Assembly (NCBI GenBank): GCA_023055505.1
Contig: JALIRH010000045.1
Coordinates: 2,356,001-2,420,000, forward strand
Direction: 5' to 3'
Source of the DNA: Callipepla californica brunnescens
Taxonomy: Eukaryota; Chordata; Aves; Galliformes; Odontophoridae
DNA length: 64,000 nt
A program made the position numbers and the translations under genes. How positions within the stretch are numbered: the first letter of the stretch is position 1; the number at the start of each line of letters is the position of its first letter. The notes under the pieces were generated by a model, which was given only the letters and a program-made list of their open reading frames with translations, had not been told where the DNA came from and searched no databases. Shown piece by piece: positions 44,366-50,299 of the stretch.

Positions 44366-44841
44366 CTAAGCCTCAGCGTTCATTTTCAGGGCTTTCAGCT
44401 GTATCCTCTCATCACCGTCTTCACCACTGGAGATGGAACTCATTTCTTGAATATTCAAGAGGTCTCCAGTGCTGCAAGTCTTCCCTGTGTTACCAGAACT
44501 CATTCGGAGGACTCTTTTTGGAAGGTCTTCCTTTCTTGAGCTGATCTTCTGAAGTTTAAAAGGGAGTTTGTTTTTTTCCCCTGCAATATCGATGCAGTCA
44601 AGTGAACAAACCTTTTCTTTTCTGGTTTTGTTGTCAACAGGACTGTTCCAGGAGGATGACAGAGACAGGTTTTCTTCTTGTTCTTTGACACTGTAAGGAG
44701 GAGTGGGGACTTCAAACGTAGCATGAAACTGAGAGTAATCAACACGGAAAAAGCCATCTTCTAGGGACATTACTGGGAGGAATCTGTGACCCCAAAGAAC
44801 TTCATCTTCTGTATATGAGGTCCTAGCTTGGCACGTCATTC
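44366..44841 (-). CDS. KCNJ3-like coding exon 3 (C-terminus)
   Basis: Begins G-MTCQARTSYTEDEVLWGHR after acceptor TTTCTACAG and ends ALKMNAEA-stop (TAG at 44368-44366). It keeps the beta-gamma-sensitive SLEDGFF loop and the GIRK1-type tail phrases PPYSVKEQEE and FKLQKISSRKEDLPKRVLRM. It stops before the last PPKLQKM-type repeats of mammalian GIRK1. The stop is in the natural last exon, so this is a short tail rather than a frameshift. Confidence 0.94.
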
Positions 44842-47800: not shown

Positions 47801-50299
47801 CAAATACAATTCACTGTGACACGGAAAAGGCTGGGATTTGGGAGTGTACTTTTTCAGTACTAGTTCCAGTCAGCTTCTTTGTGCACCTCAGATTGGTGTG
47901 CTTTCTGTACCAAGGTAGCTCCTCCATTGGTCCCACTGAAACATTAAGCTTAGAGCTAAATACAGCTCCTATCTCAAGGGGCAAAGTGTGGTAAGACACA
48001 CTCCTCTTTCACATTATTTCACTGTGACACGAGTAAGACATCTTGCTATCTTATCCAAGGCAGAAGTGTAGCAAGATCAGCTGTCAGCAGCACTGCAGCC
48101 AAAAGCACAAAGCACAAAACAGGCAGGACTTGCCACAGAGAAATGGTTTGTGAGTTACGTCACATTTGCCACAGGTTTACAGCACATACAAAGGACACTG
48201 CTGCAAAGCAGCTGATGTAAATTCATCTGCTGCTGGAACAGCTGCTGCCTCTGCTGGGACAGTGTGTCCAGTTCAAGGGACACCTTGACAAACTAGTGAG
48301 GATTTAGAAGAAGACCAAGGGCTAAGGGCTAGAAGACGCTCCTTGTAGTGAGGACTGAGGATGCAGCTCGTGCACATTTACTTGTAATCCTTCTTGTGGC
48401 AACAGCTGAGATTTGCCAAAGGTCACCACGAAGCTTGAAGACAAATCACAGCCCTGATGATCATTCGTAAGAGCTCAGGTATTACTCAGGGATTCACTGC
48501 TTAATCTGTGAAACAGCTATTGTCAAAGGAATCAGTGCTCATGTTTTCTCTGTACACCAGCATTGTGCAGCAACAGAATTATTAGCAAACGGTGCACCAG
48601 GCTGTGCATTCAGTGTGTTATTTCAGGAGAAGTTTACGGCGAATTGCCATCCCTGTGAAATCGCAGCTGTGACACTGCTCCTGTTCTGCTTTGACTTGCA
48701 TTCCATCTTGGATGATGGCCAGAAATAAATACGTTAGAGGAGGGTTTCTGATCGTTTTTGGTGCTGGAAATCAGCAGAAGTAAAGGATTATCTGGCCTTC
48801 TGATTCCTTCAGTAATTGCTCCATTATAATTCTGTGCAGTTTATTTCCTTGTACAAACCCAACCTCTTTTTGAATCTTAGTAGATCTCCATTTTAAAAGG
48901 AATTCTTTGACAAGAAAAAGATTTAACAGCTAAGTCAAGCATTCAGCACAAAGCAGGGGAAGAGCAACCCTTCACATTTACCATTGTCTTATCAGCTACT
49001 GTATCAGGCTTGTTTCTGCAGATTATTAAAACGACCAAGCAGAGGCTCCAAAAAGCAGATTACCATAGAGAACATGAAACATTTATGACATTCCTATTCT
49101 GAAATTTACATAATCACCAGGATTCAGCTGCTGATGCAGCCTGTCAGGCATGCCCCTGTGACAAGACACAGCTGCTGAGAGCTGCTCTGTTGCTTCCTCT
49201 CAACGTGCCACTTCAACCACACGGTGTTTTCCTCCCATTCTATTTCTTACGCAGTGTATCTGAGGACTCCCATGGCTGCCCAATGGTTTTGTCTCCTTTA
49301 TTTATTTATTTACGTGGTCATCGAATTGAAGTTTGGGTTTTTTTGTTGTTTGTTTTCATTCTGAGTTATATTGACCCCTCATCAGTACTTGATAAACAGA
49401 TAGTGGTGAAAATCAAAGCGCTTTTTCACTCAAGCTCGCATGCAGACCCTCTGCAGTGCTGGAAAGCTACAGGCAGGAGCCATGGGGTAAGGAACTACAA
49501 GCTAAAAACCCCCCAGACTGCCCTGAGGGGAAAAAAGAAAGGGGGGGTCAGTGCAGCTTGGCTGCTCTTGGTGCACAAGACATGGTCTCCCAGCACCACC
49601 CACCACCACCTGCTGCCCCATCCCTCCTGCTGCCACGCTGGGCCTCACCTTGATCAGCTTGCAGCGAATCTGGGCAGAAACCATGTGGCTGTTGCGGAGG
49701 TTGCCAACCCGGAACATGAGGCAGAGCTTGCCATCCCTCTGCGAGACGACTGCAGCACGGCTGAACATGAGGGTCTCAGCTCTCTTCTTGGGCTGTGACA
49801 TCTTGATGAACATGCAGCCGATGAGGAACGCGTCGACGATGGAGCCCAGCAGTGACTGGAAGAGGAAGAGCACGATGCCCTCAGGGCAGCGCTCGGTAAT
49901 GTAGCGGTGCCCATAGCCGATGGTGGCCTCAGTCTCTATGAAGAAAAGGAAGGCGGAGGGGAAGTTGTACACGTTGGCCACACACGGGCTGTAGGTGTCA
50001 TCGTGCGCCCGGTGCAGGTCACCTCGCAGGTAGGCGATGCCCCACCACATCGAAGCCATGACCAGCCAGGCGACCGTGTAGGTCAGCAGGAAGATGAGCA
50101 GATTCCAACGCCACTTGAGATCCACCAGCGTGGTGAAGAGGTCGGAGAGGTAACGACTGCTCTCCCCGCCCAGGTTCCCGTGTTGCACGTTGCAACGCCC
50201 GTTCTTGTCCACAAAACGCTGCCGCTCTCTGCGGCCACCTCCGCCGGCTGGGCCCACCGCCTGGTACTCATCACCAAACTTCCTCCGCACCGCAGCCAT
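44366..50299 (-). CDS. KCNJ3-like G-protein-gated inward rectifier K+ channel (GIRK1/Kir3.1-like), complete
   Basis: A pore-forming subunit of G-protein-gated inwardly rectifying potassium channels in the plasma membrane of excitable cells. Coding exons are 50299-49649, 45383-45167 and 44841-44366. The GT-AG junctions keep the frame, giving 447 residues. The N-terminus resembles GIRK1 (MAAVRRKFGDEYQ, then RQRFVDKNGRCNVQHGN). Two membrane segments flank the pore helix and TIGYG filter. The acidic rectification residue is in SIVDAFLIG. The pore-helix Phe typical of GIRK1 (AFLFFIE), which makes GIRK1 an obligate heteromer subunit, is kept. The cytoplasmic domain and the SYTEDEVLWGHRF block also match GIRK1. 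Human GIRK1 is 501 residues, so the tail is shorter. It lies beside NGFR and MPP3 (17q21 in human), not in the KCNJ3 region (2q24 in human), hence the empty symbol. It looks like a second GIRK1 gene and appears intact. Confidence 0.93.
44842..49648 (-). other. Introns of the KCNJ3-like gene
   Basis: Intron 2 (44842-45166) is 325 bp. Intron 1 (45384-49648) is about 4.3 kb and AT-rich, with an (AAC)n run near 46440, a poly-T near 46909-46924 and (TTTA)n near 49295. No nested coding exon was recognised. 48240-48400 has faint CR1-like phrases ('gtccagttcaagggacacct'), too degraded to be sure. Confidence 0.8.
45167..45383 (-). CDS. KCNJ3-like coding exon 2 (cytoplasmic domain)
   Basis: 217 nt after an acceptor reading TTCATCTCTAG. 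It translates as SRQTPEGEFLPLDQCELDVG and continues through ADQLFLVSPLTICHEIN to QFEIVVILEGIVETT, with no stop. It ends on the first base of a glycine codon before donor GTAAGA. The exon is too short to stand out as an open frame, but its match to the GIRK1 cytoplasmic beta-sheet core is clear. Confidence 0.95.
49649..50299 (-). CDS. KCNJ3-like coding exon 1 (N-terminus, M1, pore, M2)
   Basis: 217 codons from the ATG at 50299 to ...AQIRCKLIK, followed by donor GTGAGG. It encodes the N-terminal cytoplasmic region, M1 (about WNLLIFLLTYTVAWLVMAS), the outer loop, pore helix, TIGYG filter and M2. The outer loop reads DDTYSPC where human GIRK1 has a glycosylated N-Y-T. The residue after GYG is His. 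The boundary matches where the KCNJ3 first coding exon ends. Confidence 0.95.

What the first reader, a model, noticed from the sequence alone, without database searches (positions are those of the whole stretch)
44366..50299. A second GIRK1 (KCNJ3-like) gene in the NGFR/MPP3 region, a possible ohnologue lost in mammals
Seen: three exons with intact frames encode a full GIRK1-type channel, including TIGYG, the GIRK1-specific pore-helix Phe and the GIRK1 tail motifs. Known: human KCNJ3 is on 2q24 (HOXD side), while NGFR and MPP3 are on 17q21 (HOXB side). Inference: HOXB and HOXD regions are paralogous from early vertebrate whole-genome duplication, so this could be the HOXB-side partner of KCNJ3, retained in birds and absent in mammals. 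It would mean bird hearts and brains may have two GIRK1-type subunits.
Basis: partly seen in the sequence, partly recalled or inferred. Interest (0 to 1): 0.85.

Follow-up and report, generated by a model that had tools for sequence, protein, structure and literature searches.

The report
KCNJ3L, birds' second GIRK1 channel
This is a second copy of a heart-and-brain potassium channel gene that birds, reptiles, amphibians, fishes and sharks keep and mammals seem to have lost; it was described in 2013, but in landfowl a stop codon cuts its tail short.

Summary
The gene is real. Three minus-strand exons with GT/AG borders encode a 447-residue GIRK1-type subunit. Canonical KCNJ3 lies elsewhere in the same genome, in three exons on contig C10 with a full tail. 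So this is a second gene.

It is not new. Lovell et al. 2013 (PMC3711925) named it KCNJ3L: beside MPP3, in finch, chicken, lizard and zebrafish, not found in human or mouse, enriched in the finch ventral tegmental area.

Sharks have both copies; a bony-vertebrate-only origin (p-AU 4e-48) and grouping with bird KCNJ3 (p-AU 9e-70) are rejected. C45 carries Hox9, CACNB1 and TBX21; C10 carries Hox9, CACNB4 and KCNJ3. Lamprey was not tested.

One correction: the tail is not complete. A TAG at 44368-44366 removes the part matching GIRK1 463-501, and a decayed in-frame remnant follows. Turkey and guineafowl models stop at the same residue; nine other bird models run on. The core is unchanged from turkey (0 of 318).

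Most likely it is an obligate heteromeric GIRK1-type subunit with a weakened Gβγ anchor (inferred).

The parts
49649..50299 (-). KCNJ3L exon 1: start ATG, both membrane helices, pore with TIGYG, first part of the cytoplasmic domain
   Evidence: Open frame and GT donor; PF01007 match at C45:2405790-2406212, E 9e-57; 84% to duck KCNJ3 residues 1-230
45167..45383 (-). KCNJ3L exon 2: cytoplasmic domain, ends after the first base of a glycine codon
   Evidence: AG acceptor and GT donor, frame kept; the intron site in the glycine codon matches the GIRK-specific site of PMC1999503 (passage)
44366..44841 (-). KCNJ3L exon 3: end of the cytoplasmic core and a shortened distal C-terminus, closed by TAG at 44368-44366
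   Evidence: AG acceptor, frame kept; turkey and guineafowl models end at the same residue
44264..44365 (-). Decayed remnant of the lost tail, 34 codons in frame behind the stop, then TGA
   Evidence: 22 of 34 aligned residues identical to falcon, six-codon gap, score 95.5 against at most 29 in 500 shuffles; duck KCNJ3 aligns through the stop, residues 296-490 with one TAG
55569..62249 (+). MPP3-like exons (neighbour, head to head with KCNJ3L; the gene runs on past the window end)
   Evidence: Eight tblastn matches in the window, 62-94% identity, recalled query; a guanylate-kinase exon beyond the window at C45:2422522
11108..18765 (-). NGFR-like exons (neighbour)
   Evidence: tblastn matches, E down to 6e-59, recalled query

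Best explanation
The gene is KCNJ3L, the HOXB-side partner of KCNJ3, made by a duplication before the common ancestor of jawed vertebrates (most likely 2R) and lost in mammals. It encodes a GIRK1-type subunit that should not work alone and should pair with GIRK2- or GIRK4-type subunits (KCNJ6- and KCNJ5-like genes are in this genome) into Gβγ-gated inwardly rectifying K+ channels, in birds notably in midbrain neurons. In landfowl a stop codon removes about the last third of the distal C-terminus, which in GIRK1 is part of the Gβγ anchor; the landfowl subunit therefore probably anchors Gβγ more weakly, with lower basal and relatively larger evoked current. Shown here: gene structure, the separate KCNJ3, the relationships, the truncation, the constancy of the core. 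From papers: finch midbrain expression and the role of the GIRK1 distal C-terminus. Inferred: 2R timing, heteromer formation, effect of the truncation.
For: Structure. Separate KCNJ3 with three exons and a full tail. Tree and AU tests. Both copies in single species: gar, Rhineura, Pelusios, Latimeria. Neighbours on C45 and C10. F137 and N217 equivalents in 17 of 17 KCNJ3L rows; their meaning from PMC6346094 and PMC12748987 (passages). Core 0 of 318 changed to turkey, 0 of 241 aligned to guineafowl. Expression in finch VTA, PMC3711925. Gβγ anchor in the distal C-terminus.
Against: KCNJ3L as one clade has only 79/44 support and the outgroups are long. No cyclostome sequence. The AU groupings were named after a first tree had been seen. 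Formins and T-box genes sit on many contigs, so those two links are weak; the CACNB-specific N-terminal domain was found on C6 and C10 but not on C45. The contact predicted in simulation (GIRK1 about 450-460) lies before the cut, so the anchor may be only partly affected. No expression or current data for landfowl. Absence in mammals rests on cluster labels and on the published statement.
Confidence: 0.8

Rival explanations
1. It is KCNJ3 itself, translocated, or a recent bird-specific duplicate of KCNJ3.
For: 76% identity to duck KCNJ3 (336 of 441) and the same exon structure.
Against: A separate KCNJ3 with three exons on C10; grouping with bird KCNJ3 rejected, p-AU 9e-70; orthologues down to sharks.
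Confidence: 0.01
2. A duplication older than bony vertebrates but not 2R: a local or segmental copy that later moved to, or stayed on, a HOX-bearing chromosome.
For: 2R is inferred from neighbours only; no cyclostome was sampled; two of the linked families (formins, T-box) are spread over many contigs.
Against: Hox9 and CACNB partners on both C45 and C10, with CACNB4 about 0.34 Mb from KCNJ3.
Confidence: 0.12
3. In landfowl the gene is decaying into a pseudogene, the tail stop being the first lesion.
For: Premature stop, decayed remnant with a six-codon gap, faster tail change: 6 of 95 against 0 of 318 to turkey.
Against: The core is unchanged between species whose models share the stop (0 of 318 and 0 of 241 aligned); no other lesion in the three exons.
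Confidence: 0.05

Closest known systems
KCNJ3L (Lovell et al. 2013, BMC Genomics 14:470, PMC3711925; section 26 and passages read)
   Same: Same gene: zebra finch chr27, beside MPP3, orthologue in chicken, absent from the corresponding human and mouse loci
   Different: The paper dates the duplication to teleostomi; the tree here puts it before jawed vertebrates. The landfowl tail stop is not mentioned in the section and passages that I read. LSM12, its other reported flank, was not located here
KCNJ3 (GIRK1, Kir3.1)
   Same: Exon structure, pore, F137, N217 and D173 positions, recognisable distal C-terminus
   Different: 75-76% identity to duck and mammal KCNJ3; 12 positions fixed differently; N-terminus 17 residues shorter than the mammalian row; about 39 tail residues missing in landfowl
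KCNJ6 and KCNJ5 (GIRK2, GIRK4)
   Same: Same Kir fold; best PDB hit is a GIRK2 chain, 3SYC, E 7e-147
   Different: 66-67% identity over 268 residues; N instead of D at the Na+ site (against 3SYA) and F instead of S in the pore helix (alignments)

Membership tests
Inward rectifier K+ channel (Kir, PF01007) | IRK transmembrane domain with a TIGYG-type filter | tested here: met
   PF01007 E 9e-57, positions 1-141 of 141; TIGYG in the translation
GIRK1-type (KCNJ3 and KCNJ3L) | Pore-helix Phe (F137) and Asn at the Na+ site (N217) | tested here: met
   Both present; invariant in 17 of 17 KCNJ3L rows and in the KCNJ3 rows compared
GIRK1-type (KCNJ3 and KCNJ3L) | Complete long distal C-terminus ending in the LRKMNSDR-type motif | tested here: not met
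   Stop at GIRK1 position 462 equivalent; remnant behind the stop. A lineage-specific loss; it does not change the gene's descent
KCNJ3L orthologue group | Groups with KCNJ3L of other vertebrates and not with KCNJ3 | tested here: met
   Sauropsid KCNJ3L 100/99; bird KCNJ3 grouping rejected; KCNJ3L as a whole 79/44
KCNJ3L orthologue group | Flanked by MPP3 and LSM12 (PMC3711925) | tested here: inconclusive
   MPP3-like exons adjacent; LSM12 not located, the search (PF09793) did not complete
2R ohnologue pair | Duplication older than jawed vertebrates | tested here: met
   Sharks in both groups; bony-only origin rejected, p-AU 3.9e-48
2R ohnologue pair | Paralogous neighbourhoods on two HOX-bearing chromosomes | tested here: met
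   Hox9 and CACNB on both C45 and C10; formin-like and T-box genes on both, but these are spread widely
2R ohnologue pair | Placement relative to cyclostomes | not tested
   No lamprey or hagfish label among the hits listed
Functional GIRK1-type subunit | Silent alone, Gβγ-activated current with GIRK2 or GIRK4 | not testable with these tools
   Needs expression and recording

The most novel reading that the evidence does not exclude
Birds put a GIRK1-type subunit where mammals have none: midbrain dopamine-area neurons (KCNJ3L enriched in finch VTA, against the GIRK1-lacking GIRK2c/GIRK3 channels of mammalian VTA dopamine neurons). Bird lineages then separately cut back its Gβγ-anchoring tail, by about 42 residues in landfowl and by 9 in oscine songbirds, while bird KCNJ3 kept its full tail. 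KCNJ3L would be a lineage-tuned gain control on midbrain inhibition that mammals lost.
Probability: 0.3. Interest if true: 0.55.

Novelty: already known. Interest (0 to 1): 0.36.

Why it matters
A GIRK1-type gene kept across jawed vertebrates and missing from mammals means that mammalian GIRK subunit rules and pharmacology cannot simply be carried over to birds, reptiles or fish. Mammalian VTA dopamine neurons normally use GIRK1-lacking channels, and adding GIRK1 there raises sensitivity to GABA-B receptors (PMC5431628, passage); the finch VTA expresses KCNJ3L strongly (PMC3711925, passage). That contrast can be tested directly. The landfowl truncation is a natural deletion within the GIRK1-type Gβγ anchor, whose role is being mapped (PMC12748987, passages).

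Tried and rejected
Rejected: recent duplicate or translocated KCNJ3; bony-vertebrate-only duplication; separate duplication in sharks; chance open frames; a sequencing error behind the stop (models of two other species end at the same residue).

Led nowhere: no lamprey or hagfish label among the listed hits of the three protein searches (120, 120 and 70 rows listed). Clustering at 90% hides whether ducks share the stop. LSM12 was not located. Repeats inside the gene: one weak inverted pair, nothing of note. Papers: GIRK1/KCNJ3 with ohnolog or whole genome duplication (1 paper), KCNJ families and synteny, GIRK1 distal C-terminus (15 of 26 listed), KCNJ3L, kcnj3b with GIRK and zebrafish, GIRK1/KCNJ3 with Galliformes/chicken (10 of 12 listed), KCNJ3 with MPP3 and birds, KCNJ3 with paralogon/two rounds (12 of 33 listed), GIRK in VTA. 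No title or abstract start listed there speaks of the landfowl tail stop. The library holds open-licence papers only, and I read listings, passages and one section, so this is no proof of absence from print.

Set aside before counts: 3 of the 19 bird KCNJ3L rows (Tinamus, marked partial, which ends at ...PAKL; Nothoprocta, with an unlike end; Pitangus, an aberrant model). One search used 32 of the 215 proteins then held, plus the window and four own-genome rows; the own KCNJ3 row lacks exon 3 and 35 residues that read N. One search used 59 of 120 proteins plus the window and four own-genome rows, returned a quick tree only, had one stray residue at the exon join of the own KCNJ3 row (put right), and its KCNJ2 outgroup was dropped afterwards for its very long branch.

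Full report
What is there. The window is part of contig C45 of a 1.085-Gb genome (C45:2356001-2420000). The best protein hit is a turkey one, 98% over the whole length; eight residues differ from turkey and five from the guineafowl model over the parts aligned, so I take it for a third landfowl species (inference). On the minus strand three exons, 50299-49649, 45383-45167 and 44841-44366, join with GT/AG borders into a 447-residue frame without internal stops. The second intron falls after the first base of the glycine codon before MTCQARTSY, the intron site that PMC1999503 reports as exclusive to GIRKs (passage).

A separate KCNJ3 exists. With a duck KCNJ3 (P0089) as query, the same genome shows KCNJ3 on contig C10: exon 1 at 19762667-19763347, exon 2 at 19766388-19766624, exon 3 at 19787248-19787832, the last 98% identical to duck. 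Exon 3 runs to the normal ...LRKMNSDRFT end. A stretch of 35 codons inside exon 1 reads N, so that part was not seen. The PF01007 search gave 15 matches. Among the 22 matches outside C45 and C10 none exceeds 65% identity to KCNJ3, so no third GIRK1-like gene was seen.

It is already in print. Lovell et al. 2013 (PMC3711925; section 26 and passages read) describe KCNJ3L on zebra finch chr27, with MPP3 and LSM12 as flanking loci, orthologues in chicken, lizard and zebrafish, and none at the flanking loci of human and mouse. [quoted passage not shown] The name KCNJ3L occurs in this one paper of the library searched.

Age of the duplication. In a 37-row maximum-likelihood tree KCNJ3 forms a group that includes basking shark (98/95). 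The window sits with turkey (100/96), then falcon (99/93) and kiwi (100/99), inside a sauropsid KCNJ3L group (100/99), with amphibian, chondrichthyan (catshark, elephant shark) and ray-finned KCNJ3L beyond. Holding all bony rows together against the chondrichthyan rows is rejected (p-AU 3.9e-48), as is uniting the chondrichthyan copies (3.8e-61) and uniting the window and turkey with bird KCNJ3 (9e-70). The duplication is therefore older than living jawed vertebrates, deeper than the published 'teleostomi'. Against over-reading: KCNJ3L as one group has only 79/44, the outgroups are long, the groupings were chosen after a first tree had been seen, and no lamprey or hagfish sequence was obtained. 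Two copies in one species are listed for gar, Rhineura and Pelusios and for Latimeria (P0082; P0229, a fragment assigned by eye and not put in a tree). I see no mammal named among the 120 listed hits or the 70, while one search lists many mammalian KCNJ3; each label stands for a 90% cluster.

Neighbourhoods. C45 (4.4 Mb) carries a Hox9 gene at 2719146, a CACNB exon at 3363765, a T-box gene at 3059206 and a formin at 745925. C10 (20.6 Mb) carries a Hox9 gene at 57550, a CACNB exon at 19424867 and a CACNB N-terminal exon at 19433861, a T-box gene at 7537080 and a formin at 19583351, beside KCNJ3 at 19762667. Best PDB matches: CACNB4 for the C10 exon, CACNB1 for the C45 exon, formin-like protein 3 for both formin exons, TBX21 for the C45 T-box exon; the C10 T-box exon was not searched. 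The names HOXB9 and HOXD9 rest on recalled human map positions. Limits: formins and T-box genes also lie on many other contigs, PF12052 was not found on C45, three of the four expected Hox9 genes were found, and no formal synteny test was made. MPP3-like exons start at 55569 on the plus strand, head to head with KCNJ3L, and NGFR-like exons lie at 18765-11108 on the minus strand.

The tail is cut. The TAG at 44368-44366 ends the protein at residue 447, which aligns to position 462 of a 501-residue mammalian GIRK1 row. The next 34 codons, 44365-44264, read as a decayed tail: 22 of 34 aligned residues identical to falcon, with a six-codon gap, score 95.5 against at most 29 in 500 shuffles. The duck KCNJ3 query also aligns through the stop (residues 296-490, 56% identity, one TAG). 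Of 19 bird KCNJ3L rows inspected, two (turkey, guineafowl) end at the same residue, nine run to the full end, five (Corvus, Malurus, Junco, Camarhynchus, Catharus, all oscines by recalled taxonomy) stop nine residues short at ...KL, and three were set aside as partial or aberrant. The eleven bird KCNJ3 rows looked at all keep the full end. The oscine shortening rests on protein models only; one row set aside (Tinamus, marked partial) ends at the same place, so part of that pattern could be an artefact of gene models.

The core is held. From the window to turkey, 0 of 318 core residues and 6 of 95 tail residues differ; to guineafowl 0 of 241 aligned and 5 of 95. Turkey and guineafowl share the stop, so this constancy is hard to square with a dying gene. 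No DNA of other landfowl was available, so dN/dS was not computed.

How it probably works. The pore phenylalanine (F137) and N217 are kept in 17 of 17 KCNJ3L rows. F137S is the change that lets GIRK1 be expressed as a homotetramer (PMC6346094, passage), and N217 makes GIRK1 Na+-insensitive (PMC12748987, passage). GIRK1 alone is retained in the ER and reaches the surface with GIRK2 (PMC5615076, passage). So KCNJ3L should be an obligate partner of GIRK2- or GIRK4-type subunits; KCNJ6- and KCNJ5-like genes are present (L012, L013; named by similarity). Of 12 positions fixed differently between KCNJ3 and KCNJ3L, nine can be scored in both outgroup rows; at five of these KCNJ3L has the state of both KCNJ5 and KCNJ6, and KCNJ3 at none: KCNJ3L is the more conservative sister there. 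The distal C-terminus of GIRK1 (last 121 residues) forms with the N-terminus a Gβγ anchor; removing it lowers apparent Gβγ affinity 4-9-fold in GIRK1/2, and channels without it have low basal activity and a stronger relative response; in simulations N-terminal 27-31 touches about 450-460 (PMC12748987, PMC6346094, passages). The landfowl protein keeps about 82 of those 121 positions and loses about 39, and its N-terminus is 17 residues shorter than the mammalian row. The simulated contact lies just before the cut, so I infer a weakened anchor, not a lost one; this is not shown.

Why it may matter. Mammalian VTA dopamine neurons normally express GIRK2c/GIRK3 channels, and expressing GIRK1 there raised their sensitivity to GABA-B receptors (PMC5431628, passage). 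A GIRK1-type subunit strongly expressed in the bird VTA would be a real difference in midbrain inhibition. Whether the labelled finch cells are dopamine neurons was not settled in the passages that I read.

Verdict. Observation largely right, interpretation supported, gene already known. New here, as far as the searches listed in Tried and rejected show, are the pre-gnathostome dating by tree tests and the landfowl tail stop.

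Noticed in passing
window 44368-44264 (-): Premature TAG and decayed tail of KCNJ3L in this landfowl; the same end in turkey and guineafowl models.
   Followed up: yes
P0225, P0013, P0227, P0005, P0007: Five oscine KCNJ3L models end nine residues short at ...KL, a possible second, separate tail shortening; seen in protein models only.
   Followed up: partly
L018 (G000:C35:2107001-2116900): A diverged GIRK-like gene, 55% to the window protein over 273 residues, on the same contig as KCNJ5- and KCNJ1-like genes; probably the KCNJ5/9L gene that Lovell et al. 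2013 also report as absent from mammals (passage). It has a very long branch.
   Followed up: no
L019, KCNJ3 exon 1 (G000:C10): 35 codons around the second membrane helix of this genome's KCNJ3 read N, by assembly gap or withheld; not pursued.
   Followed up: no
window 11108-18765 and 55569-62249: NGFR-like and MPP3-like exons lie within about 50 kb here but megabases apart on human 17q (recalled), so gene order between them has been rearranged in one lineage.
   Followed up: no
P0001, P0029 against the window, residues 406, 428, 434: Turkey and guineafowl share three tail residues that differ in the window, which may help to place the window's species among landfowl.
   Followed up: no
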